Part shown: positions 30,421 through 57,066 of the stretch, piece after piece
Position numbering within the stretch: position 1 is the stretch's first letter
How the letters are laid out: the number at the start of each line of letters is the position of its first letter
Source of the DNA: Bacteroidota bacterium
GTDB taxonomy: Bacteria; Bacteroidota; Bacteroidia; UKL13-3
Reading direction: 5' to 3'
Length of the DNA: 64,000 nt
NCBI GenBank assembly: GCA_040388375.1
Contig: JAZKBU010000004.1
Coordinates: 248,001 to 312,000, forward strand
Notes under the pieces: model-generated
What the model was told of the DNA's origin: nothing
The model's input: only the letters and a program-made list of their open reading frames with translations
The model's database searches: none
Made by a program: the position numbers and the translations under genes

Positions 30421-33400
30421 ATGGCTACCAAAAAAGAAGAATCTAGCAGTTCAACAAACGGACATGTTGAAGTTGTAACCCCGGCAAAAGGGAAACGAAA
30501 TAGTAAGCTGACAAAAGATATTTTTACAGATAAAGAATTGGTTGACTTACCCGATGCGATGATAAACGATAGAGAGTTACTTCGTATACTTACCGAAGTA
30601 AAAAATGGAAACTTTAGTGTACGACTACCTATTGACCAAACAGGCTTAAGTGGTAAAATTTGTGATACGCTGAATGAAATTATTTCGCTCAACGAAAAGA
30701 TGATGGATGAGTTTACCTATGCCGGTAATACAATTGGTAAACAAGGTAAGCTTACACAACGTATACAATTGCCCGCAGCCAAAGGTTCATGGACAAAAGG
30801 TATTGAGTCACTCAATACACTTATTTCCGATTTGGTGCATCCTACTATTGAAATTGCGCACGTAATCAGTTCGGTGGCAAAGGGAAATCTTTCACAAGAA
30901 ATGCCGCAGGAAATTGGCGGACATACACTACAAGGAGAGTTTGCCAGAATTGCCAAAGAGGTAAATGACATGGTAAAACAGTTAAACTTATTCTCGATGG
31001 AGGTAACGCGTGTGGCAAGGGAAGTAGGTTCGGAAGGAAAACTCGGAGGACAGGCAAAAGTAAAAGGGGTTGCGGGTGTATGGAAAGATTTAACAGACTC
31101 GGTAAACCAAATGGGAAGTAACCTTACTGCACAAGTAAGGAATATTGCGGAGGTAACAACAGCGGTAGCGAAAGGCGATTTATCTAAAAAAATTACGGTG
31201 GATGTAAAAGGAGAAATCCTTGAACTAAAAAATACCATCAATACGATGGTGGATCAGCTGAACTCTTTTTCTTCGGAGGTAACACGTGTGGCGTTGGAAG
31301 TAGGAACAGAAGGAAAACTAGGTGGGCAAGCACAAGTAAAAGGAGTTGCGGGAACTTGGAAGGATTTAACAGATTCGGTAAACCAAATGGCTTCGAACTT
31401 AACGGGTCAGGTAAGGAATATTGCGGAGGTAACAACGGCTGTGGCCAAAGGCGATTTATCACGACAAATTACGGTGGATGTAAAAGGAGAAATCCTTGAG
31501 TTAAAAAACACAATTAACACGATGGTGGATCAGCTGAATTCATTCTCTTCAGAGGTAACACGTGTGGCAAGGGAAGTAGGTTCGGAAGGAAAACTCGGAG
31601 GGCAGGCAAAAGTAAAAGGTGTGGGTGGGGTATGGAAAGACTTAACAGATTCAGTAAACCAAATGGGAAGTAACCTTACTGCACAGGTAAGGAATATTGC
31701 AGAGGTAACAACAGCCGTAGCGAAGGGTGACTTATCGCGTAAAATAACGGTGGATGTAAAAGGAGAAATTTTAGAGTTGAAAAACACCATTAATACGATG
31801 GTGGATCAGTTGAACTCATTTTCATCGGAGGTAACACGTGTGGCGCTGGAGGTAGGAACAGAAGGAAAACTCGGAGGGCAGGCACATGTAAAAGGTGTTG
31901 CGGGAACATGGAAAGATTTAACAGACAGTGTGAATGGTATGGCCTCGAACTTAACGGGCCAGGTAAGGAATATTGCGGAAGTAACAACGGCCGTAGCGAA
32001 AGGAGATTTGTCGCGTAAAATTACAGTGGATGTAAAAGGAGAAATCCTTGAGTTAAAAAATACGATTAACACGATGGTGGATCAGTTGAACTCATTTGGT
32101 TCAGAGGTAACGCGTGTGGCACGTGAGGTAGGTTCGGAAGGGAAATTGGGTGGACAAGCAGATGTACCAGGTGTTGCCGGAACATGGAAAGATTTAACGG
32201 ATTCAGTAAATAAAATGGCTTCCAATTTAACGGGCCAGGTAAGGAACATTGCAGAGGTAACAACAGCCGTAGCGAGGGGTGACTTATCGCGTAAAATTAC
32301 AGTGGATGTTCAGGGCGAAATTTTGGAGTTGAAAATTACCATTAATACCATGGTGGATCAGTTGAACTCATTTGGTTCGGAGGTAACACGTGTGGCACGT
32401 GAGGTAGGTTCAGAAGGAAAATTAGGTGGACAGGCTACGGTGGAAGGAGTTGGTGGTGTATGGAAAGATTTAACAGACTCTGTAAACCAAATGGGAAGTA
32501 ACTTAACTTCTCAGGTAAGGAATATTGCCGAAGTAACAACTGCTGTGGCAAAAGGAGATTTATCGCGTAAAATTACGGTGGATGTTCGCGGGGAAATTTT
32601 GGAGTTGAAAAATACCATCAACACAATGGTGGATCAGTTAAATGCATTTGGTTCGGAGGTAACGCGTGTGGCACGTGAGGTAGGTTCGGAAGGAAAGTTA
32701 GGTGGGCAGGCAGACGTACCGGGTGTAGCAGGAACCTGGAAAGATTTAACGGACTCCGTAAATAAAATGGCATCCAATCTTACCTCACAGGTAAGGAATA
32801 TTGCAGAGGTAACAACAGCTGTGGCAAACGGAGATTTGTCGCGTAAAATTACGGTGGATGTTCAGGGCGAAATTTTGGAGTTGAAAAACACCATTAACAC
32901 CATGGTGGATCAGCTTCGTGGTTTTGCATCAGAAGTAACGCGTGTTGCTCGTGAGGTAGGAACAGATGGAAAACTGGGAGGACAAGCAAACGTGCCAGGA
33001 GTAGCAGGAACCTGGAAAGATTTAACGGATTCGGTAAACCAAATGGCGGGTAACCTTACCGATCAGGTGAGGAATATTGCCGAGGTGGCCATTGCGGTGG
33101 CGAAAGGTGATATGTCGAAAAAAATTACAGTGGATGTACGCGGAGAAATTCTCCAGTTAAAAGAAACACTGAATACCATGGTGGATCAGTTGCGGGCATT
33201 TGCATCAGAGGTAACCAAGGTGGCCCGAGAGGTAGGAACAGATGGTAAGTTAGGAGGATATGCATTTGTACCGGGAGTAGCAGGAACCTGGAAAGATTTA
33301 ACGGATGGTGTAAACCAAATGACAAGTAATCTTACTGCACAGGTAAGGAATATTGCAGAGGTAACAAAAGCGGTAGCGGGAGGTGACCTTTCAAAAACGG

Positions 33401-36400
33401 TAACCATTGACGTAAAAGGAGAAATCCTGGATTTGAAAAACACGATTAACACGATGGTGGAGCAGTTAAACTCTTTTGCTTTCGAGGTAACGCGTGTAGC
33501 TCGTGAGGTGGGTACAGAAGGAAAATTAGGGGGTCAGGCAGAAGTAAAAGGAGTAGCGGGAACGTGGAAAGATTTAACGGATTCCGTGAACATGATGGCT
33601 TCCAATTTAACATCGCAGGTACGTGGTATTGCAAAAGTAGTAACCTCAGTGGCAACCGGAAATCTTCGCCAAAAATTATCGATTAACGCAAAAGGGGAGG
33701 TTGCGCAATTAACGGATACAATCAATGAAATGATTGAAACACTTGCGGTATTTGCCGATCAGGTAACAAACGTGGCGCGTGAGGTGGGTGTAGAAGGAAA
33801 ACTGGGAGGACAAGCAAGTGTGCCGGGTGCTTCGGGCATCTGGAAAAACTTAACAGAAAACGTAAATCAGTTAGCACAAAATTTAACAACGCAGGTACGT
33901 GCCATTTCGGATGTGGCATCGGCTGTAACCAAAGGAGATTTAACACGAAACATTAGGGTGGATGCAAAAGGTGAGGTGGAGGCTTTGAAGGATACCATCA
34001 ACCAGATGATTACCAACTTACGTGAAACCACATTGATTAATCAGGATCAGGATTGGTTGAAATCCAATTTGGCGAAATTTGGTCAGATGTTACAAGGGCA
34101 ACGTGAGTTGGAAACCGTAACACAAAGGATTCTTTCAGAATTAGCCCAGGTTGTACATGCACATTATGGCGCGTTTTATTTGTTGAAACAAGATGAAGAT
34201 TTGCAAAGTGTAAGGCTAAAATTATTTGCAGCTTATGCATATAAAGCAGAGAAAAACATTGCCAAAGAATTTGCCATTGGTGAAGGATTAGTTGGTCAGT
34301 GTGCTTTGGAAAAAGAACGGATTATTCTTTCAAAAGTTCCTTCTGATTACATCAAAATAAACTCGGCACTGGGTAAAGCAAAACCGGCTAATCTTATTGT
34401 GCTTCCGGTATTATTTGAGAACAACGTGAAAGCGGTAATTGAGTTAGCTTCACTGGATGCATTCAGTGAAACACATTTGGACTTTTTAAGTCAGATGACG
34501 GAAAGTATCGGGATTGTATTGAACACCATTGAAACCAATTCGCGTACAGAGGAATTGCTTACACAATCACAATCATTGGCAGGGGAGTTAAAAATTCAGC
34601 AAGAAGAGTTACGCAGAACAAACGATGAGTTACAAGACAAAGCACTACTCCTTGTTAAACAAAAAAATGAGGTGGAGGCTAAAAACAAAGAGGTAGAAGA
34701 AGCAAGGCTTTCATTGGAAGAGAAAGCAGAACAGCTTACATTAACATCTAAATACAAATCAGAGTTCTTGGCAAACATGTCACATGAGTTGCGTACCCCT
34801 CTTAACAGTTTGCTCATTCTTGCACAGCAGTTGTACGAAAATGCTGAAGGTAACTTGAATGATAAACAGGTACGCTATGCCAAAACCATTCACTCTTGTG
34901 GTGACGATTTAATTCAATTGATTAACGATATTCTCGATTTATCTAAAATCGAATCAGGATTTATCACCACCAATTTCTCTGCTGTTCGCTTTAACGATAT
35001 TGCCGGATTTGTGGAAACAACCTTTAAGCCTATTGCAGAGGCCAAGCATTTAGGATTTAATATAGACATAGATGGAAACCTTCCAGACATTATGGAAACG
35101 GATTTACAGCGCTTGAATCAGATTTTGAAGAACCTATTGTCGAACTCTTTTAAATTTACAGAAAAAGGTGGCGTCAAACTAAAAATATACGAAGCGAAAA
35201 AATCATGGAAACCCGGAATACAAGCACTAGATACTGCCAAACAGGTAGTAGCATTTGCCATTAGCGATACCGGAATTGGTATTCCGCAGGAAAAACAAAA
35301 CATCATTTTCGAAGCTTTCCAGCAAGCAGAAGGTTCAACAAGTAGGAAATATGGCGGGACAGGTTTAGGGCTTTCCATCAGCCGTGGTCTTACCGAGTTA
35401 TTGGGTGGTACAATCGAATTGGAGAGCACATCAGGACAGGGTAGTATATTTACCTTGTATTTACCGGTCGAAAACACAACAGGTGCTGCGTTAAATGAAA
35501 GTACATTAAATACCTTTCAGCAACTGCAACAACTATCTAACGGCAATGGAGACATTGATAATTTATTAAACTCTATTCGTATTACTTCTGAAGGAATAGA
35601 ATCCAAAGGTTTGGTAAATGAAATGATTAACGATGCCGGTGATGATAGGAACAATATTCAACCCCACGATAAAGTAGTATTGATTGTGGAAGATGATTTA
35701 CGCTTTGGAAAAATATTGGTGGAGAAGGCACGTCAGGAAAAACTGAAAGCAATTGTTGCGGTGAGTTATATTGAGGTTTTTGATTTTGTGAATCGCTTTT
35801 CGCCTATTGCCATTACGCTGGATGTAAAACTTCCGGATACAAGTGGTTGGCGTGTACTTGATTTATTGAGAAACGATTTAAGCTACCGCCATATTCCTAT
35901 TCACCTTATTTCTGGCGAAGAAAATAGAATATTGGCTTTAAAACGTGGAGCACGCAGTTTCCAATTGAAGCCAATAGAGAATGATTCTTTGAATGAACTT
36001 TTTGATGACATCATTAAATTTAATGAGAAAGAAGTGAAGCAATTGCTTGTAGTGGAGGATAACCAATTGGAATCATCACAAATTGCTAAAATTTTAAGAG
36101 GAGAAAATATTTTGGTAACCATTGTTTCTTCCGCTAAAAAGGCACTTTCAACAATTAAAAAGCAAAGTTTTGATTGTATTATTTTAGACTATACTTTGCC
36201 TGATATGTCGGGTGCCGATTTGGTGAAACAGGTATATGACATCAAAGAAAAAAACACACCAATTATTGTTTACTCTGCCAAAGATTTTAACAAGGCAGAA
36301 GTGAACATGCTTAATCAAAATTCAAATACAGTGTTATTGAAAGGTGTAAACTCATTGGAGCATTTGCTGGAAGAAACCGTTTTGCATTTACACATCAACC

Positions 36401-36837
36401 ATAAAAATTTGGCAGCTGAAAAAAGAAAAGTAATTGAGAATATCCGAATGAAAGAAGATATTCTTACCGGCAAAAATATTTTGGTAGTGGATGATGATGT
36501 TAGAAATTTATTTGCACTAACAACCGTTTTCGAACGTTTCAATATCAATGTAATTACTGCCGAGAGTGGGAAAGAAGCCATTAATATTCTGAATGAAAAT
36601 CCTGCTATTAATATGGTGTTGATGGATATTATGATGCCTGAAATGGATGGGTATGAAACCACCCAAAAAATAAGGAGAGAGCATAAAAATACATCCTTAC
36701 CAATTATTGCTGTAACTGCAAAAGCAATGAAAGGCGATAGGCAAAAATGTATTGAAGCAGGAGCTTCAGATTATATTACCAAACCTTTAAAAATTGATCA
36801 GCTATTATCGCTTATGCGCGTATGGTTTTATAAATAA
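30421..36837 (+). CDS. Giant soluble hybrid histidine kinase with tandem HAMP array, GAF and three receivers
   Basis: This 2138-residue protein has no signal peptide or membrane helix. The N-terminal part (about 50-1210) is a HAMP-type signal-relay array; after a degenerate first block, eleven near-identical 92-residue units run from about residue 194 to 1205. Then come a GAF domain (about 1230-1370), a coiled coil, a HisKA domain (H-box [16 protein letters not shown], His about 1456) and an HATPase ([29 protein letters not shown]). Three receivers end the protein: about 1750-1865, 1870-1985 and 2017-2138. Each has the conserved Asp ([33 protein letters not shown]). The layout resembles fungal Nik1-type osmosensor kinases. 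It is followed 11 bp later by a receiver-kinase gene. Confidence 0.92.
31000..34035 (+). repeat. Tandem 276-bp coding repeat, eleven units
   Basis: The unit GAGGTAACnCGTGTGGC begins at 31000 and recurs every 276 bp (for example 31276), giving eleven in-frame copies of a 92-residue HAMP pair. Units 1 and 3, and 2 and 4, are more alike than neighbours (REVGSEG ... QMGSNLTAQ against LEVGTEG ... MASNLTGQ), and units 5 and 7 match each other, so the array probably grew by duplication of two-unit blocks. Copy number can vary by recombination or be misassembled. Confidence 0.9.
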
Positions 36838-45982: not shown

Positions 45983-47353
45983 TCAGCCTACCAAAGGGAG
46001 ATCAATTTCCTGAAGATACATCTCCTTGTACATAGTAGAATTTCTGAATTTGCCATTGAGCAGTCTCTTAGAGTATAATTTAGAATCTTCCTTAAAATCC
46101 TCCTCATTCTCACTTTTGATTTCAGTTTCAGCAATAACAATATTACCTGGATAAACAAAATAGGCCGGAATCACTCTTGAATCATTGATTCCCAGCTCCT
46201 CATAAATTTTATTCAGCCTTGTATAACCCGCCAATTGTCGGGCATCAGCAATACTTGGATTACCATTTTGATATCGGGGTTTGTACTTGGCATCCACTAT
46301 CGCTTTTAAACCCGTGGATGTATTGATAATAAAATCCGGCTCTTGTCCATAAAATTTTTGATGATACTTTACTTCTCCTTCTCCTGAAAACTCTTCTTTC
46401 AACTTCTTAAAAACAAACAACTCAAACAGCTTACTCATATCTATCCAGAAAGGTGGGTGCAAACACTTTTCCGCAGAAACACTTCTGGCAATGTTATAAT
46501 CTCTCAGAGCTAACAACTGATTCCCCAACTGAACAACTCGATTATAGTTCTTGTAAAAAGGGTTGTTTTCTTTATAGATTAAATGTGAAAAAGACTGTTT
46601 TCCTACTTGTTGAAATCCACCCTGACAGTAACGCCATATATCAGAGAGACTTTTTCTAATCTCATGTTGGGCCGGAAATTCATCTAGTTCCCGAGGAATT
46701 ACAGATAAAATATGCTTAATAAACCTGTTTGCTTCAGTATCTACACCAAACTCTTGATATTGGCATACAGTGCTTGTAAGCCTATTCCTAAATACATTTT
46801 GTCTGATCTGATGCCCTACTAAGATTTTACCTTTAATTCGGCCCGATAAGTTTTCTTGCCTTTGATAATAAGACTTTTTCAATCCTCGTTTCAGCAAGTC
46901 CTTCACTGCAGATAAAAATTGTGCAATGAGAAATGGAGTTAAAAGAGGCTGCATTTTATTCTCGATTTCTATCCAATCATCTTCAAATTTTGTAACAACC
47001 AATCCATCCAAATGATCAAAATTTTCTGATTCCTTTAATGCTTCCAAGAGCATTTCAATATAGTTAACTTGGTATTGATCCGTATTGAGTTTTGGTGCCA
47101 CATATATTGATAAACCTAATCTCGGTAAGCGGTCTAGGCCAATATAATAGGATGTTGAAATCCCACAAGAATAAACGCCCTCTTGTTTACCTAACTGGAT
47201 GGATACACAATTTTTTTCCAAGTCTCCATTAATACAAATCTGATCCTCCAATATATCGGATGTAAAATAAGTATCCCAATCTGTCAGCTGTTGAAAAACC
47301 TTCAGATGATTCTGCTGATAATAATATTCAAAATGTTCAGAGATATTTAGCAT
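45983..47353 (-). CDS. mcrC: McrC subunit of a 5-methylcytosine-specific McrBC restriction system
   Basis: This 456-residue protein has the McrC layout: an N-terminal half with a YSCGISTSYYIGLDRLPRLGLSIYVAPKL-type domain and a C-terminal PD-(D/E)xK nuclease domain. The catalytic motif is visible as GQEPDFIINTSTGLKAIVDAKYKPR (about residues 345-368), where the Asp of PDF and the DAK of VDAKYK are the nuclease residues. McrC stimulates McrB GTP hydrolysis and cleaves DNA carrying modified cytosine. It begins 13 bp after the McrB stop, so the two form one operon. Confidence 0.9.
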   Translation of the reverse strand: MLNISEHFEYYYQQNHLKVFQQLTDWDTYFTSDILEDQICINGDLEKNCVSIQLGKQEGVYSCGISTSYYIGLDRLPRLGLSIYVAPKLNTDQYQVNYIEMLLEALKESENFDHLDGLVVTKFEDDWIEIENKMQPLLTPFLIAQFLSAVKDLLKRGLKKSYYQRQENLSGRIKGKILVGHQIRQNVFRNRLTSTVCQYQEFGVDTEANRFIKHILSVIPRELDEFPAQHEIRKSLSDIWRYCQGGFQQVGKQSFSHLIYKENNPFYKNYNRVVQLGNQLLALRDYNIARSVSAEKCLHPPFWIDMSKLFELFVFKKLKEEFSGEGEVKYHQKFYGQEPDFIINTSTGLKAIVDAKYKPRYQNGNPSIADARQLAGYTRLNKIYEELGINDSRVIPAYFVYPGNIVIAETEIKSENEEDFKEDSKLYSKRLLNGKFRNSTMYKEMYLQEIDLPLVG

Positions 47354-47366
47354 TGGCCTACACCCA

Positions 47367-50003
47367 TTAACTTAGTTGGTCGATAATCGCTTTTGCGGAT
47401 TCTTTCAAAATACCGTCTTTGATATATTCTTCAAGAATGGGTTTGATTTCATATTGGATTCGCAAACTGAAATCGATTGGCTTTTCTTTTATATTATTTC
47501 CATTCTCATCCTTTTCGTATTGCTGAATAAAATAAGAATGTCCTAACCAGACATCTTTAGGATCAAAGTCGGTGTTTAAATAATCAGACTTTTCAATTGC
47601 GATGGCATTCGCAGAATAATCCATTTCGGGATTAAAGTTCTTGACGAATAAACCTGCAACCACATTAAAGATTTCCGATTTAAAATCATCACCTAACTCT
47701 TGTTGTAAATTTTTTGGTAATACCTCCACAAAGGCAAAACGTCTTCTAATGGCATAATCAATATGTCCTACGCTACGGTCCGCAGTATTCATTGTACCAA
47801 TAATGTAAAGATTGGGAGGTAATACCAATTTATTGGATCCATCAACCTCATATACAGCCTCTACTTCTTCTCCGCGATATTCAAGAGCGTAAATTAACTC
47901 ACCCAGCACAGATGAAAGATTAGCCCGGTTAATTTCATCGATAATTAATGTGTAGCTTTTCAATGCTTGCCTTTCACCTATTGTTTTCGGGTCAAAAGAC
48001 TGCTTATTTTCCGTTAAGTGGCTCTTGAATTTCTCTATTAAATTTTGATATAAATAATACATCCCACTTCGCGCAGATTTCGAAAGAGCTTTGTTATCCT
48101 TAATCTTTATTGAAGGCGTGGAAAGATACAATCCTATATACCCGTTAATAATATCATTATCCTTAATCAGTACGGAATCCTTTTCGTTGCTATATCGGTT
48201 AACCCTTATTGATTTATCTTCTATCGCTATTATTTTAGGCTTAGTTTCACTTTTTATTAAAATCTCACCATGCTTTTCCAATTCCAACTCAAGGATTTCC
48301 TTGAATTTCTTGTATTCCGTCCCAACCCAAATTTCCTTAGAGATAAGCTCTGGTGTCTTCTTAAAGTCCAAGAAGCTCTTTAACGCTTCCTCTGCAAATA
48401 ATCCAATACATTTATTTACACTTTTATATTCAATTTTATCTCCTCTTGATTCAGCAACTATTCCTCTAACAAAATCCTCGTATGTGTAACTGGGATGAAA
48501 TTGGACAATTTTATATGCTGATTCTGCTAACCGCTTTTTTAGGAAAATAGCCATCCCATTCGCATAAGTATCTGGATTGGAAGACTTCTCTTTAACTACA
48601 GTTCTAATTTTATCAAATGTGACGCTATAGGGACCACCGGTATTTATTTGTACTTTGACCGTATTTGCCTCTATGTTTAAAATTTTGAAACTAGATGACC
48701 CATCAGGAGTAGGGATACTAAGACCAATCTGAAGATTTGCTGTGATAAATGCATCATCAAGAGATGAGTATTCCAACGTATCTTTTACAAGATCAACCGC
48801 CATTTCTTTAGCTAATCTTGTTTTCCCTGTTCCCGGAGGACCTTGGAGGATGATTTGCTTTTTGTAGCTAAGAAGGTTAATAATTTTATTCATCTGATTT
48901 TGATAGTTAACTTCTCTATAACATTTATATGAAACAACAGGTGATTGATTCCCTACACTTGGATAGCTAGATTTATAATATTTAAAATCTTGATAATCCT
49001 CTGGATTTACGCTTTCAATCTTCCTCGCTAAGTAAACCCAACTTGCCGACTTGTTTCCATCTGAATAGTCTGAGAACTTCTCTTGATACCAATTAATTTG
49101 TCCATATAGATTCGACCAGGTAGCCTTATCCAATTCTTGTTGATTTTCCGCAAAATCAATAATCTCAGCAATATACTTTACCTCGTGCTTTGAAGTATAA
49201 AACACTCTAAAAAAGCCATCTTCTTCAATACACTGTTTCAGAAGCTTTAGCGTACTTGAGGTGCCAACCGGCTTTTTGTGATTCCATAATACAATAGGTT
49301 TACCATTTTCAGAATCACTTATAGCATCTTCTTGCCAACCTGTTGAATCCGGACAGACCAAACCAATTACAGAATCTTTCCATTCTTTTTCGATAGCATA
49401 ACATATCCGAGTAAGAAAATGAGTGTAATTTTCAGTATTATTAACCGTCAATGTCAGTTCTGAGAAAAACTCTATGAAATCATTCTTAAATGTTACCCCA
49501 TTAAAAGGCTTCATAAACAAATTTTGAGAAATCTGACTTCTATGATTTTCACTCAACATGGTAAAATGGTCAATAGGGTTTAAAAGATACTCAACGGCAT
49601 TTTTAACCGAACCATCAACCAAAACTTTTTCAAACTTGTATGTAATGAGTTGTTCAACCCAATTATTCATTCTTACAAAGGCCAATGCTAGAACCCTTGT
49701 ATCCTCATATTCATTAAACTCATTTTTTCGGTGGGCTTTTGCGTCACAATAGGAAATAACACTAAATATTGCATTCCCAAATGAAAGAATATCTTGAGAG
49801 TTTTCAAGGAGTTTTTTTAACTCATGGTAATCCTTTTTCCTTGCAATGAGTAAATTCTTACTCTCATCGTTAACTTCTAACTGCAAAAAGTGCTGAAGGG
49901 CATCCTTTGCCTTTTGAAAATAGAATTCAGACGAGTTAGCAATCTTTAGTAAATTAGGATTGCTTATAGCCTCTTCTATTTTTTTTCTCAGAGCAAAATT
50001 CAT
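47367..50003 (-). CDS. mcrB: McrB-like GTPase subunit of an McrBC restriction system
   Basis: This 878-residue protein has an unusual N-terminal half (about 1-380) and a McrB-type AAA+ GTPase in the C-terminal half. Walker A is QGPPGTGKTRLAKEMA (about residue 398). A large insertion follows, and then Walker B in SYTLIIDEINRAN (about 685-697) and the McrB signature IGTMNTADRSVGHIDYAIRRRF (about 750-771). The N-terminal region about 265-355 (FRVFYTSKHEVKYIAEIIDF ... SASWVYLARKI) resembles an EVE/PUA-like modified-base reader. The ATG at 50003 overlaps the TGA of the upstream HsdS remnant in an ATGA arrangement. Confidence 0.9.
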   Translation of the reverse strand: MNFALRKKIEEAISNPNLLKIANSSEFYFQKAKDALQHFLQLEVNDESKNLLIARKKDYHELKKLLENSQDILSFGNAIFSVISYCDAKAHRKNEFNEYEDTRVLALAFVRMNNWVEQLITYKFEKVLVDGSVKNAVEYLLNPIDHFTMLSENHRSQISQNLFMKPFNGVTFKNDFIEFFSELTLTVNNTENYTHFLTRICYAIEKEWKDSVIGLVCPDSTGWQEDAISDSENGKPIVLWNHKKPVGTSSTLKLLKQCIEEDGFFRVFYTSKHEVKYIAEIIDFAENQQELDKATWSNLYGQINWYQEKFSDYSDGNKSASWVYLARKIESVNPEDYQDFKYYKSSYPSVGNQSPVVSYKCYREVNYQNQMNKIINLLSYKKQIILQGPPGTGKTRLAKEMAVDLVKDTLEYSSLDDAFITANLQIGLSIPTPDGSSSFKILNIEANTVKVQINTGGPYSVTFDKIRTVVKEKSSNPDTYANGMAIFLKKRLAESAYKIVQFHPSYTYEDFVRGIVAESRGDKIEYKSVNKCIGLFAEEALKSFLDFKKTPELISKEIWVGTEYKKFKEILELELEKHGEILIKSETKPKIIAIEDKSIRVNRYSNEKDSVLIKDNDIINGYIGLYLSTPSIKIKDNKALSKSARSGMYYLYQNLIEKFKSHLTENKQSFDPKTIGERQALKSYTLIIDEINRANLSSVLGELIYALEYRGEEVEAVYEVDGSNKLVLPPNLYIIGTMNTADRSVGHIDYAIRRRFAFVEVLPKNLQQELGDDFKSEIFNVVAGLFVKNFNPEMDYSANAIAIEKSDYLNTDFDPKDVWLGHSYFIQQYEKDENGNNIKEKPIDFSLRIQYEIKPILEEYIKDGILKESAKAIIDQLS

Positions 50004-51946: not shown

Positions 51947-54900
51947 CTACTTAAACTTCCGGTCCTTAATAACGCCTTTTTGTTTGAGGTAATTAAAGTT
52001 ACTGCGTAAGCGTATATACCAGAATATCTTTTCTTCAATATAATACTCGCTCGTATTGGGAATTTGCGTTTTGGTTTTTTGGTATATGTTTAAGCAATAA
52101 GCTTTGTAGTAATCGCCATTTTTAGACTGCTGTACGTTGTATAACGGGAACAACCCCCTCTCAGTACTGCTATCTTTTTTTACATTGGCATATAGCTTAT
52201 AAAGCAATCGTGTTTCGTAATCGCCATTAACATATTGGTCTTTGTAAAAAGTTCTCCATAAAAAGCTATTGGTGGTTTTTACATTAAAAGTATTCCGGTA
52301 GCTATATAGTTGCCATAACAATTGAAAACGTTTGCTGGTATTGGTGCGCTGGCTAAAAAACAAAGGCTGAACGGAAAAGTAATTCATACTATCGGACTTT
52401 TTATACCAAACCAATGGTGCTGCATGGAAATAACTGTAGTTGTTTCCTTTTATACGTTGTACCAGCGGCCATAAAAAACTCCACGATTTTACCTTGTCGG
52501 TTTTTTGGTAACGGTACAAAAAGTAAGCTATATTAAAGCGCGTATTGGTATTATCCTTTAAGCGGTTATAGTTGTATAAAGGCCATAAAAAATGCTGCTC
52601 TTTTTTTAGGTTTTTAATGGACCAGAACAGCGGAGTAATGGCCAGGTTTTGTGAAACTGCATCTTTGTTGAAATGGTAAACCGGAAATAGGGTTAACCAT
52701 TTTTTATCATTGTTCTTAAAGCTCCAAACTATTGGGAATACAACACGTTTGCGTTTTGTTGGGTAGTTCGCATATCGTTCAACTACATCAAAATAAATTG
52801 GAAACAAGGTATTACTCGTTTTTGTTTGCCCTCCTCCGTATTCGTATTTGTGCCAATAAATAGGCAAAATTCTAAAACGATTGAGTGATGTATTACTCGA
52901 ATCCTTATTAATCCAAACCAATGGGGTTAACATGGTTCTTCTTTGCGTGCTTGTTTTATTAAACCGGGTATCGTGAAAATAAAGCGGAATAAACAGGAAC
53001 GATTTTTTAGCAGGTGTTTTATTGGCAAACACCAACGGATAAACATGAAGCGTGGTTTTATTTGTACTTTGGTAACTGTAAACCAAAGGGAATATAAAGT
53101 TTGACTGGTAAGCGTATTTGCCCGTATCTTTTTTATTAAACCAGAGCGGGAACAATGTTTTGCTGGTATACGAGCCATCTTTAAAATACCAATACAAAGG
53201 CGTTATGCCAATAAGCTTGTGTAAATTATCGGTGCTGCTTTGGTAATGGAACAAAGGAAACAGCGTACGCGATTTTTGAAAACTATCCATTTTGCTCCAC
53301 CAGATTGGAAACAGTACATGGCTTTTCATTTCAGGCGATTTGGTCTTCCAGAATAAAGGTGTAATAGCTGTTATGGTTGTTTTGTCTGCCAGCTTTTCCC
53401 TATAATAAAGAGGGAATAAACACCTGTAAGTCCTGTTGCTGTCCGTTCCACTCCACCAAATAGGGAACAATACAGTTCTACTATAACCCAGGGCTTTTAT
53501 ACTCCAAAATAAAGGAGTAACAGCCGTTGTGGTTAAGCCGGAGTATTCCTTGTTTCTGTAGTAAAAAGGAATCAATAAGCTTGATTGATGAAAACTATCT
53601 TTTGTACTCCACCACAAAGGAAACAAAACGGTGTTTTTTTCGTCTTTGGTTTGTTTACTAAAGTATATAGGAAGTAATGTTGTTTTATTTAAGCTCTTGC
53701 TTCGTGTTTTGTAAAACAAAGGAAAAATAGATAGTTGTTTGATGGCATTGCTGTCGAATCCATTTTGTTCAAAGTGTACAAAAGGTAAAACAGTAACTGA
53801 TTTGTGCTGCTGGTCTTTGTATTTCCAATACAAAGGAAACAGTGTTGTATTGTTGTGTGAATTGTTTTTATAGTGCCAGTAAAATGGGAAAATAACAGTG
53901 TTGTCGGTAGTATCGTTTTTACTGACACGCTTATCGCTCCACACAAAAGGAAATATAAAATACCGACTTTGGCTGTCGCCTTTTACGCGCCATACAAAAG
54001 GGGTATAAGCGCTTAGCTGATAGCTTTTATTGGTTAAAGCATAGTTTTGATAAAATGGAAATACCGTTAGGTTTTTATAAGCTGCATCCTGGTATTTCCA
54101 TACAATAGGAAACAATACTTTGTGTTGGTATTGCTTCTTGGTTTTTGAAAACCAAACAGGAAAAATAGTATTGCTTTTTAAGTAGGGCAGGCTATCAACC
54201 AAAATGTTTCTATACCACCAAACGGGGAACAGCGTTTTGGAAGTACGGTTAATTTTTAAATTTTTATCGTAGCTGTCGTGAGCCCAGTACAATGGAGTAA
54301 TACCAATGGTTTTGGAATTGTTGTTGCTTTCGTTTTTAAAGTAAAACGGAAACAAGGCAAATGTTTTTTCGTGCCAGTCAACTTTTCGTGACTTATAGCT
54401 ATACTCGTTTTTATAAAGAATGGGCACAATTAAACGGGTGTTTTCCCATTTGCTTTTGTAGCTATAATAAACAGGTAAAATCAAATTCGTTTTGATGGTA
54501 TCGTCCCCGAGGTATCGTTTTTTATTATACCATATTGGCAATAAAAGGTGAAACTTGGCTTGCGTGTTTTTATTATAGAAGTATAGGGGAAGTAAGGATT
54601 TAAAAGAACTGTTATTGTCTTTCTCGGCATAATAAACAGGGAATATATATTTGCTTGATGAGCCATAACCATTGGCTTCTTTATAATAAAATGGAAATAC
54701 AGCTAAGCTTTTTTCCTTATTCCATGTTTTATAAAATACAAAGGGAATAAAATACTGTTTGTATATAGTATCATACCTGGTAACTTGTTTAAACCTGTAC
54801 CAAACCGGAAACAGTAAATGACTGCTTTGGTTAGCCCCACGCGATTGCCAATACAACGGAAATACCGTTAATGAAGTATCAACAATAGAGCGCTTATACC

Positions 54901-55927
54901 ACACGATGGGTATATATGATTTGTTCGTGTATGCTTTGCTTTTATAAGTATAATATAAAGGGAATACAAAAGTCCTTCGCGAAGTATCATTTTTCCAATA
55001 TTCATTCTTTTGCCAATAGATGGGAAACAATATGTTTCGGTTAAACTCAGTGGTGCGTTTATGCCAAAAAAGAGGCGTTACCACAAGGTTTGTTTTTGGA
55101 TTTAACCAATCAAATGTTTTGTCGTAATGCACCAATGGAAACAATGTAAAGCGGGTAAAGTCTTTATTGGTATGGGTAAATAACAAAGGGAACAAAACTG
55201 TTTTATGAGCTAAGTGTACAGAATCGTTTTGTTCATATTTTTTAGAGTAAAATAACAATAAGGCTGAGTGTCGTACCGTTCGGTTTTCTTTCTTGTAAAA
55301 ATACAAGCCCGGGTAAAAGGAAAAGTTTTTTTCGTTTAAGTCGTTTATTTTTACATACCTGTAAATGGGAAATAAAGTATTGGTAGTTCTATATTCATTG
55401 CGGTAATACCAGTAAATAGGGAAGGCCACAAAATTACTTTTGTTGTTTATCACATCGTTTTTACTCCATATAAAAAAGAAAAAATTGTTTTGCGTTAATA
55501 AGCCTGTTTTTGATTTAGTAATGTTTAAAAAATTGATTTCAGGAGCCAACTCTAAAAAGCGGTACGACTTACTTTTAGAGGTAGTATCGCTGATGATGCG
55601 GAACAAGCTTGGATAATAAAGCGTACCAATTCGGATGTCTTTTAAAGCAGCGCTGCTATCGTACCAGTAAAAGGGTAAAAAATGATTGTGCTTGTAAGGT
55701 GTTGTATACGATTTATAACTTCTGTAAATAGTAAAGAAAAGCTGTAAATCTTTATAGTCTTTTGTTTTGTGTTTGTAAATCAGTGGCCACATGTGCCTGT
55801 TCTTATCGCGCACCAAACCAAAATCAAACTTTAACTGGTTATTGGTGGAGTCAACCTGGCTTTTAACAATTTTAGAAGCACTAAACCATAAAACAAACAG
55901 CAGTATATATTTCCATTTATAACCCAT
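51947..55927 (-). CDS. Giant exported protein with about 55-60 aromatic LFP-type repeats
   Basis: This 1326-residue protein has a signal peptide (about residues 1-23, LLFVLWFSASKIVKSQ). Almost the whole mature chain is a short tandem repeat of about 20-25 residues. Each repeat has a hydrophobic-Phe/Thr-Pro-hydrophobic-aromatic-aromatic core such as LFPLYW, ITPLFW, VFPIVW or LLPIYF, followed by a basic or polar stretch (KSR, SKTK, NKDS). Examples are HNNTTLFPLYWKYKDQQHKS and EMKSHVLFPIWWSKMDSFQK. I counted about 55-60 cores. The pattern suggests a repeated beta-hairpin forming a solenoid, a propeller or an outer-membrane barrel. No family is recognised. It is followed 17 bp upstream by a WG-repeat gene in the same operon. 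Confidence 0.75.
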   Translation of the reverse strand: MGYKWKYILLFVLWFSASKIVKSQVDSTNNQLKFDFGLVRDKNRHMWPLIYKHKTKDYKDLQLFFTIYRSYKSYTTPYKHNHFLPFYWYDSSAALKDIRIGTLYYPSLFRIISDTTSKSKSYRFLELAPEINFLNITKSKTGLLTQNNFFFFIWSKNDVINNKSNFVAFPIYWYYRNEYRTTNTLFPIYRYVKINDLNEKNFSFYPGLYFYKKENRTVRHSALLLFYSKKYEQNDSVHLAHKTVLFPLLFTHTNKDFTRFTLFPLVHYDKTFDWLNPKTNLVVTPLFWHKRTTEFNRNILFPIYWQKNEYWKNDTSRRTFVFPLYYTYKSKAYTNKSYIPIVWYKRSIVDTSLTVFPLYWQSRGANQSSHLLFPVWYRFKQVTRYDTIYKQYFIPFVFYKTWNKEKSLAVFPFYYKEANGYGSSSKYIFPVYYAEKDNNSSFKSLLPLYFYNKNTQAKFHLLLPIWYNKKRYLGDDTIKTNLILPVYYSYKSKWENTRLIVPILYKNEYSYKSRKVDWHEKTFALFPFYFKNESNNNSKTIGITPLYWAHDSYDKNLKINRTSKTLFPVWWYRNILVDSLPYLKSNTIFPVWFSKTKKQYQHKVLFPIVWKYQDAAYKNLTVFPFYQNYALTNKSYQLSAYTPFVWRVKGDSQSRYFIFPFVWSDKRVSKNDTTDNTVIFPFYWHYKNNSHNNTTLFPLYWKYKDQQHKSVTVLPFVHFEQNGFDSNAIKQLSIFPLFYKTRSKSLNKTTLLPIYFSKQTKDEKNTVLFPLWWSTKDSFHQSSLLIPFYYRNKEYSGLTTTAVTPLFWSIKALGYSRTVLFPIWWSGTDSNRTYRCLFPLYYREKLADKTTITAITPLFWKTKSPEMKSHVLFPIWWSKMDSFQKSRTLFPLFHYQSSTDNLHKLIGITPLYWYFKDGSYTSKTLFPLWFNKKDTGKYAYQSNFIFPLVYSYQSTNKTTLHVYPLVFANKTPAKKSFLFIPLYFHDTRFNKTSTQRRTMLTPLVWINKDSSNTSLNRFRILPIYWHKYEYGGGQTKTSNTLFPIYFDVVERYANYPTKRKRVVFPIVWSFKNNDKKWLTLFPVYHFNKDAVSQNLAITPLFWSIKNLKKEQHFLWPLYNYNRLKDNTNTRFNIAYFLYRYQKTDKVKSWSFLWPLVQRIKGNNYSYFHAAPLVWYKKSDSMNYFSVQPLFFSQRTNTSKRFQLLWQLYSYRNTFNVKTTNSFLWRTFYKDQYVNGDYETRLLYKLYANVKKDSSTERGLFPLYNVQQSKNGDYYKAYCLNIYQKTKTQIPNTSEYYIEEKIFWYIRLRSNFNYLKQKGVIKDRKFK

Positions 55928-55944
55928 ACTTTAATTAATACGGA

Positions 55945-57066
55945 TTATTGTTTATCCCAGATAGGTAATAAGTTTCCTCTGGTATCAGCATACAATGAAA
56001 CACCGCTGTATACAACCTCGGCAATACCATCGTCAAAAGTGCCAACAAAGTCGTATTCTAATTTTATAATTAGTTTGCCCTGTGCATTAATGGCTCCCCA
56101 TTTGCTTCCTTTTCTTACAGGACATAAGCCGTTGGCAAAATAGGCTACTTCATCGTAGTAAGGATTCATTTGTATTTGGCCTTTGGCATTGATAAAGCCT
56201 AGCTTGGCCCCTTGCTTAAAACCGGCAAAACCTTCGGCAAACGGGCGTAACTCTTCGTAAACAGGTTCAAATTGTTTCTCTCCCAATTTATTAATAAAGC
56301 ATGACTTACCATTCATAGATATTTCGGCAAAGCCGTTAAAAAACATGGTGGCAAAATCATATTGATTGGGAATAACAACAGTTCCGTTGGTGTTTATATA
56401 ACCAAACTTTCCTTCTTTGATACAGATGGCTAAGCTATCGCTAAAGTCGCTTATTTCGCTATACTCTTCCGATATTTTGGTACAACTTGTATTGATTAAA
56501 TAGGTTAAGCCATTTTCCCTTACCCGTGCTACATGGGTATTAAAGTTAACAGCATCGCGGTATTTAAAGTCCGATACATAAGCTCCGTTTTTATTAATAT
56601 AAGCAAAGCGATAAGAGAGATTACTAATATCGAAACCAAACTTTTGGGTTATATCATCTACCTTTTTACTCACACGTGCCAGGCCGTTGTAAAATGGGTT
56701 AGCCTCATATACAAAGCTATCGAGTTTTAGAACAGTTTTGCCTGTATTGTTTATATAGCACCAGTGTTTTTTGAAATCGCGAACGGCACACAAGCCTTCG
56801 CTAAAGGTGGAGATGTATTCATACAAACCCGTATCAATAATTCGTTTTTCCTGTACGTTAATTAAGCAAGGCTGGTTGCTTAAGGCAACTACAGCATGGC
56901 CTTCATTAAACTCTAAAGCAATATCGTATTTGGGTTGAATAATTACTTTTCCTTCGGTATTCATATAACCCCATTTGTTTTTAAGCAGTATAGGAAACAA
57001 CTGCTGTGCACTCACACTGAGTGAAACAAAAACAACAAGGCCAAAGGTTAATAAAGGGTGTTTCAT
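55945..57066 (-). CDS. WG-repeat protein
   Basis: This 373-residue protein has a signal peptide (about residues 1-20, ending SVSAQ) and then tandem WG repeats of about 45-50 residues: LLKNKWGYMNTEGKVIIQPKYD, EGKFGYINTNGTVVIPNQYD, GAKLGFINAKGQIQMNPYYD and GSKWGAINAQGKLIIKLEYD. WG repeats are beta-propeller-like modules found in exported Bacteroidota and other proteins; their ligands are unknown. It is the first gene of a two-gene operon (17-bp gap) with the giant LFP-repeat protein, so the two may form one envelope structure. Confidence 0.85.
   Translation of the reverse strand: MKHPLLTFGLVVFVSLSVSAQQLFPILLKNKWGYMNTEGKVIIQPKYDIALEFNEGHAVVALSNQPCLINVQEKRIIDTGLYEYISTFSEGLCAVRDFKKHWCYINNTGKTVLKLDSFVYEANPFYNGLARVSKKVDDITQKFGFDISNLSYRFAYINKNGAYVSDFKYRDAVNFNTHVARVRENGLTYLINTSCTKISEEYSEISDFSDSLAICIKEGKFGYINTNGTVVIPNQYDFATMFFNGFAEISMNGKSCFINKLGEKQFEPVYEELRPFAEGFAGFKQGAKLGFINAKGQIQMNPYYDEVAYFANGLCPVRKGSKWGAINAQGKLIIKLEYDFVGTFDDGIAEVVYSGVSLYADTRGNLLPIWDKQ

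What the first reader, a model, noticed from the sequence alone, without database searches (positions are those of the whole stretch)
51947..57066. Giant LFP-repeat protein next to a WG-repeat protein
The 1326-residue protein is built from about 55-60 copies of a 20-25-residue unit with the core hydrophobic-(F/T/L)-P-hydrophobic-aromatic-aromatic. It has a signal peptide and no known domain. The neighbour has WG propeller repeats. An envelope structure such as a very large beta-solenoid or barrel is possible. The unit is not one of the repeats I recognise (it is not PQQ, NHL or BNR).
Basis: partly seen in the sequence, partly recalled or inferred. Interest (0 to 1): 0.6.

Follow-up and report, generated by a model that had tools for sequence, protein, structure and literature searches.

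The report
Giant basic beta-hairpin ribbon, Bacteroidota envelope
A previously unclassified exported protein of some Bacteroidota bacteria is built almost entirely from about 60 copies of a 17-residue hairpin that are predicted to join into one very long, strongly positively charged beta-sheet ribbon; what it does is not known, but clinging to negatively charged membrane or polymer surfaces is the best guess.

Summary
Each unit is one beta-hairpin folded around F-P-L. No Pfam, NCBIfam, PHROGs or PDB sequence matches. Relatives of 760-1830 aa were found in about two dozen Bacteroidota MAGs. They share N- and C-terminal units and differ in the number of central units; one has about eleven near-identical 91-residue super-repeats of five units. 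AlphaFold2 on 23 window units (pLDDT 84, pTM 0.64) and, independently, coevolution among 753 adjacent unit pairs both support an antiparallel single-layer meander. The nearest solved folds are the ApoB100 belt and, for a second member, CPAP G-box, OspA and MORN sheets; it is neither a propeller nor an OmpA barrel. Every Bacteroidota member is very basic (pI 9.6-10.2; window net charge +111) and 17-23% aromatic. It follows the Bacteroidetes signal-peptidase Q-rule and has no T9SS tail. The WG gene next door is present in 10/10 genus genomes, the LFP gene in only 5/10: not an obligate pair. Verdict: a new repeat family of a known architectural class. Function is inferred: a polyvalent envelope ribbon for anionic surfaces (about 0.35).

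The parts
51947..55927 (-). LFP-repeat protein gene, 1326 aa, the finding
   Evidence: intact ORF; no family match; singleton in its genome; relatives under purifying selection, dN/dS 0.11-0.28
55859..55927 (-). signal peptide, residues 1-23, with Q24 after the predicted SPI site
   Evidence: sequence; Q24 invariant in the 6-member alignment; fits the Bacteroidetes Q-rule (PMC5837995); no lipobox cysteine
55214..55858 (-). conserved N-terminal region, residues 24-238, degenerate units (DFGxxRxxNxxxWP, YYPSxFR, NNxFFFxW)
   Evidence: conserved across all members
52607..55213 (-). central array, residues 239-1107, about 48 regular 17/19/21-residue hairpin units; number varies between species
   Evidence: unit spacing, shuffles, length variation 760-1830 aa
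52949..54184 (-). residues 582-993, 23 units modelled by AlphaFold2: two strands per unit, FPL turn
   Evidence: pLDDT 83.6, pTM 0.64; fold searches
51950..52606 (-). conserved C-terminal region, residues 1108-1326, degenerate units ending in FWxxRxRSNxxxLKxKG
   Evidence: invariant motif in family; no T9SS tail although 144 were found elsewhere in this genome
55945..57066 (-). WG-repeat protein, 373 aa, exported, 17 bp upstream; neighbour, not an obligate partner
   Evidence: PF14903 E 2.8e-61; present in 10/10 genus genomes while LFP is in 5/10

Best explanation
An exported, T9SS-independent envelope protein whose mature chain is one continuous antiparallel beta-meander of about 60 short hairpins. 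Each 17-residue unit is strand (-7..-2), F-P-L turn, strand (+2..+7). The result is a single-layer ribbon with one long hydrophobic-aromatic rim (L-F-P-L-Y-W) and one long polar, lysine-rich rim with variable loops. SHOWN: repeat, unit, family, end conservation, basic and aromatic make-up, purifying selection. SUPPORTED by model plus independent coevolution: hairpin meander. INFERRED: the ribbon works as a polyvalent adhesive belt. The uncompensated positive charge (+111) implies a polyanionic partner, and the FPL/Trp hairpin tips dip into, or pack on, a lipid leaflet (outer-membrane inner leaflet, inner-membrane outer leaflet, or LPS). Overall strength would then be tuned by unit number, in principle like the ApoB100 belt on LDL.
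For: Unit and chance test. AF2 of 23 imperfect units (mean pairwise identity 22%): pLDDT 83.6, pTM 0.64, two strands per unit. Coevolution on 753 adjacent unit pairs, not using AF2: within a unit, cells predicted only by antiparallel pairing (-k with +k) have mean z 3.1 and 3.6, cells predicted only by parallel pairing 0.4 and 0.8; between units the strongest cells are +2/-4 (16.9), +5/-5, +3/-3, +3/-5, +4/-4, with strict even/odd alternation. Length variants come in steps of two: spacings above 17 are odd in 257 and even in 57 distinct segments, and a 21-mer lengthens both flanking strands. Super-repeats of five units fit a unit with an even number of strands. Fold: ApoB100 Z 23.9 over 357 residues, rmsd 6.3, next unrelated Z about 14. 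A second, independent member gives CPAP G-box Z 10.1, OspA 8.4, MORN1 8.2. pI 9.6-10.2 in all 17 Bacteroidota members tabulated; the window protein is the most basic and most aromatic of the 38 window genes checked. Hydrophobic gradient away from the turn: |k| = 1-3 hydrophobic, |k| of 6 or more polar, Lys 53% at +6. Signal peptide with Q, no T9SS tail.
Against: No experiment and no neighbour supports a lipid or polyanion ligand. The hydrophobic residues lie along one edge on both faces rather than on one face, unlike a textbook amphipathic sheet, so the ApoB likeness may stop at the backbone. [quoted passage not shown] The whole-chain model of the smaller member was poor (pLDDT 56, pTM 0.32), so the overall shape is unknown. 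AF2 is known to over-predict confident beta-structures for perfect repeats (PMC11795689), though those were solenoids of identical units. Between-unit pairing is less clear-cut for antiparallel against parallel (2.1 against 1.7).
Confidence: 0.4

Rival explanations
1. A passive structural or adhesive ribbon or fibre of the envelope (scaffold like MORN or CPAP G-box sheets, or an adhesin whose reach scales with unit number); the aromatic rim is only the folding core or a ribbon-to-ribbon contact, and no lipid is bound.
For: The second member's best-ordered part matches free-standing single-layer sheets CPAP, OspA and MORN1. Unit number varies from about 27 to 86 by motif count between species, as in adhesins and scaffolds. 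The gene is dispensable in the genus.
Against: No T9SS tail for surface export although 144 such tails were found in this genome; extreme conserved basicity is not needed for a scaffold.
Confidence: 0.3
2. A matrix protein that binds polyanions: the lysine rim binds extracellular DNA, acidic capsule or exopolysaccharide, and the ribbon cross-links the matrix.
For: Net charge +111, pI 9.6-10.2 in every Bacteroidota member tabulated, lysine at fixed unit positions.
Against: No known export route beyond the outer membrane was found; does not explain the conserved aromatic rim.
Confidence: 0.15
3. A lipid conduit: the ribbon curls into a hydrophobic groove bridging the two membranes, as in TamB/AsmA-type and VPS13/BLTP proteins.
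For: LptD and the bridge-like LPD-3 appear among Foldseek hits; hydrophobic rim.
Against: LPD-3 match is weak (TMq 0.23). No TamB/AsmA Pfam match in any of 19 members. Length varies 2.4-fold between species, ill suited to a fixed periplasm width. Cleaved signal peptide, no membrane anchor.
Confidence: 0.08
4. A giant membrane-spanning beta-barrel or a beta-solenoid.
For: Porins, BtuB and LptD appear in the hit lists.
Against: Strands of about 6 residues; odd-numbered super-repeats; barrel hits at rmsd of roughly 13-29 A and far below ApoB100; antiparallel coevolution within units; C-terminus is a charged helix in the model, not an aromatic beta-signal.
Confidence: 0.07

Closest known systems
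Apolipoprotein B100 beta-belt (9coo, 9bde, 9ea7)
   Same: Very long continuous antiparallel sheet; VIA Z 23.9, 357 residues, rmsd 6.3; Foldseek prob 0.99; [quoted passage not shown]
   Different: 6% identity, no shared repeat; ApoB has a globular N-terminal domain; here hydrophobic residues line one edge on both faces and the units are short hairpins; bacterial
OspA single-layer beta-sheet (Borrelia)
   Same: Free-standing antiparallel single-layer sheet; Foldseek prob 0.98-0.99, VIA Z 8.4
   Different: OspA is a short lipoprotein (entries here about 315 aa); no LFP motif; far fewer strands
MORN repeats (TbMORN1, TgMORN1; junctophilin)
   Same: Tandem beta-hairpins forming an elongated sheet; VIA Z about 8; lipid role proposed for both
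   Different: Different motif, no Pfam match here; intracellular eukaryotic examples; here exported
CPAP/SAS-4 G-box (TCP10 domain)
   Same: Single-layer antiparallel sheet of tandem units, VIA Z 10.1
   Different: Eukaryotic centriole protein, chains of 136-183 residues, no LFP motif
WG_beta_rep (PF14903), the neighbouring gene
   Same: Exported repeat protein with aromatic motif
   Different: Model length 35, no match to LFP; conserved in the genus independently of LFP

Membership tests
Single-layer antiparallel beta-hairpin repeat class (what it works like) | Tandem hairpins giving an antiparallel meander | tested here: met
   AF2 two strands per unit, pLDDT 84; coevolution antiparallel within units; fold neighbours
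Single-layer antiparallel beta-hairpin repeat class (what it works like) | One layer, both faces without a second sheet | tested here: inconclusive
ApoB / large lipid transfer protein superfamily | Sequence homology and lipovitellin-like N-terminal domain | tested here: not met
   No Pfam match in the window protein and no LLTP-type domain among weak hits in 19 members; 6% identity
MORN repeat | Pfam MORN profile | tested here: not met
   No MORN hit at E up to 10 in the window protein or up to 1 in 19 members
OmpA-type or other outer-membrane beta-barrel | Membrane-spanning strands of about 9 or more residues with alternating lipid-facing residues and a C-terminal beta-signal | tested here: not met
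   Strands of 5-6 residues; hydrophobicity falls with distance from the turn instead of simply alternating; C-terminus RLRSNxxxLKxKG is helical in the model
Beta-propeller repeats (PQQ, NHL, BNR, WD) | Profile match or four-stranded blades | tested here: not met
   No profile match; two strands per 17-residue unit, no four-strand period
Type IX secretion substrate | C-terminal Por_Secre_tail domain (TIGR04183; other tail types not searched genome-wide) | tested here: not met
   144 matches in the genome, none at this gene; no NCBIfam hit
Bridge-like lipid transfer (TamB/AsmA/VPS13) | Pfam domain and membrane anchor | tested here: not met
   No domain hit; cleaved signal peptide

The most novel reading that the evidence does not exclude
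A new family of giant bacterial envelope ribbons, about 27 to more than 85 hairpins long, that lie on a membrane or LPS surface by inserting a continuous row of F-P-L/Trp hairpin tips into one leaflet while a lysine rim holds the phosphates: a bacterial analogue of the ApoB belt, with length evolving freely by gain and loss of whole hairpins.
Probability: 0.25. Interest if true: 0.8.

Novelty: new variant of a known kind. Interest (0 to 1): 0.5.

Why it matters
It defines an unclassified repeat family (17-residue LFP hairpin) in uncultured Bacteroidota, with independent model and coevolution support for its architecture. If the surface-binding idea holds, it would be a single-chain, length-tunable membrane belt in bacteria; in any case it offers a natural source of very long single-layer beta-sheets for biophysics and design.

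Tried and rejected
Beta-solenoid: rejected on antiparallel coevolution within units and the +2 length steps. Single strand per unit in a membrane barrel: rejected on odd super-repeats and short strands. WG/LFP functional pair: weakened, WG in 10/10 and LFP in 5/10 genus genomes with empty sites. Three-unit period in the window protein: weak only. Weak Pfam hits in other members (BglII, CcdB, FERM) look like chance. Teneurin/YD-shell likeness in the first fold search had TM under 0.12 and came from a low-confidence model; not pursued. Phage tail-fibre models in BFVD match the backbone (TMq 0.32-0.45) at 4-5% identity; not pursued. A first genome-contig scan with a single sequence found nothing; the profile scan found 24 loci. 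Viral contigs and plasmids: nothing. Literature: no description of such a repeat found. In pdb_via lists no propeller was among the rows shown; that absence is not used as a test.

Full report
What is there. The window (contig G000:C4 of a 4.0 Mb, 98% complete Bacteroidota genome) holds an intact 1326-residue ORF on the minus strand at 51947-55927, 17 bp downstream of a 373-residue WG-repeat ORF. The WG protein matches PF14903 nine times (E 2.8e-61); the large protein matches nothing in Pfam, NCBIfam, PHROGs or the PDB sequences, and a 19-member profile finds no convincing PDB relative either (best E 0.07). It is the only such gene in its genome.

The repeat. Forty-seven strict core motifs occur, against 0.7 on average (maximum 4) in 2000 shuffles; prolines at lag 17 number 30 against 3.2 (maximum 9). 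Across the family the distinct spacings are 17 (443), 21 (123), 19 (111), 18 (31); above 17, odd values outnumber even ones 257 to 57, which is what lengthening a hairpin one residue pair at a time would give. Positions relative to the proline: -2, +1, +2 and +3 are 94-100% hydrophobic in 17-mers, +3 is Trp in 67%, +6 is Lys in 53%, and polarity rises with distance from the proline on both sides. Window units share only 22% identity on average.

The family. Searches of related genomes and of one genome per species gave relatives in the same genus, in two other genera of the family, and in MAGs labelled Bacteroidales, Flavobacteriales/Flavobacteriia, Marinifilum and Bacteroidetes; a sample of 296 Bacteroidota genomes gave no match outside the window's own genome, so the family is rare. 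A more distant Victivallales protein with looser units (L059) suggests the unit reaches beyond Bacteroidota. Complete members run from about 760 to 1830 residues. They share the N-terminal ~200 and C-terminal ~210 residues, ending in FWxxRxRSNxxxLKxKG, and differ in the number of central units. L056 carries about eleven near-identical 91-residue blocks of five units (17+17+19+17+21), and L043 and L041 also have a five-unit period. Close pairs show dN/dS of 0.11, 0.12 and 0.28: the protein is under selection.

Structure. AlphaFold2 on a 763-residue member with a 19-row alignment was poor overall (pLDDT 56, pTM 0.32), but its best region already showed two short strands per unit. On 23 units of the window protein (residues 582-993) with 108 rows it gave pLDDT 83.6, pTM 0.64, no residue under 50, and 46 strands: strand -7..-2, turn F-P-(L), strand +2..+7. 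Because AF2 is known to give confident but unreal solenoids for perfect repeats (PMC11795689), I tested the pairing without it. Direct-coupling analysis of 753 adjacent unit pairs shows, within a unit, strong coupling of -k with +k (antiparallel-only cells mean z 3.1 and 3.6; parallel-only 0.4 and 0.8). Between units the strongest cells are +2/-4, +5/-5, +3/-3, +3/-5 and +4/-4, with strict even/odd alternation. Between units the contrast with parallel pairing is weaker (2.1 against 1.7). Taken together: an antiparallel hairpin meander. Five-unit duplications argue against one membrane strand per unit, since an odd number of strands would turn the block upside down.

Fold neighbours. For the 23-unit model, ApoB100 residues 2820-3376 stand out (VIA Z 23.9, rmsd 6.3, 357 aligned; next unrelated rows Z 14 with rmsd near 27), and ApoB100 is also Foldseek rank 1. 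For the other member the ordered part matches CPAP G-box (Z 10.1), OspA (8.4) and MORN1 (8.2), all antiparallel single-layer sheets (my knowledge of those folds). A shared fold shows no function.

Location and chemistry. The signal peptide ends in S/A-Q in the members aligned, as the Bacteroidetes Q-rule predicts for signal-peptidase I substrates (PMC5837995). There is no lipobox and no T9SS tail, although 144 such tails were found in this genome. A periplasmic or membrane-associated place is therefore most likely (inference). All 17 Bacteroidota members tabulated have pI 9.6-10.2, and the window protein carries +111 net charge and 21% F/W/Y; of the 38 window genes checked it is the most basic and the most aromatic. 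So much unpaired charge suggests a polyanionic partner (inference).

Neighbourhood. pabB-WG-LFP-mnmE is the local order in the window (gene names from sequence, not tested by profile). In the genus, WG is present in 10/10 genomes and LFP in 5/10. In two genomes without LFP, WG is followed by mnmE after 30 bp (L118) or about 67 bp (L116); a third has a small ORF that looks like a REP-type transposase there (L117). In other genera the neighbours differ. LFP thus looks self-contained and dispensable.

How it most likely works. Best guess: a long ribbon that holds on to an anionic surface, with the FPL/Trp rim in or on a lipid leaflet and the lysine rim on phosphates, strength set by unit number. 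The architecture is well supported (about 0.8); this function is inference (about 0.35). The main caution is MORN repeats, also hairpin sheets and long called lipid-binding, for which liposome pelleting did not confirm the binding (PMC7725318). Rivals: scaffold or adhesin ribbon, polyanion-binding matrix protein, lipid conduit, barrel or solenoid.

Novelty. A new repeat family without an entry in the databases searched here, in a known architectural class: new variant of a known kind.

Noticed in passing
L056:7956-12272: Relative with about eleven near-identical 91-residue blocks of five hairpin units, suggesting recent expansion by recombination.
   Followed up: partly
L059:7878-11351 (Victivallales): 1158-aa protein with looser LWP/LFP units and a C-terminal part that looks TPR-like, pI 7.4; suggests the unit extends to the PVC group without the basic character.
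   Followed up: partly
L117 and L118 (genus relatives without LFP): The WG-mnmE gap is 30 bp in one genome and holds a small ORF resembling a REP-type transposase in another; LFP is gained or lost at this site.
   Followed up: partly
L036:7414-7944: About 530 bp between WG and LFP in this relative, against 10-17 bp in the window, L037 and L038.
   Followed up: no
window 45983-50003: Two adjacent ORFs; the 878-aa one has a P-loop (LQGPPGTGKT) and looks like McrB of a McrBC restriction pair; not tested.
   Followed up: no
window 30421-36837: A 2138-aa ORF that may be a large hybrid sensor kinase, next to a response-regulator-like ORF; not tested.
   Followed up: no
BFVD hits to the 23-unit model: Predicted phage tail-fibre proteins (for example phiPMW A0A1S5R1M4) share the long hairpin-array backbone at 4-5% identity.
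   Followed up: no
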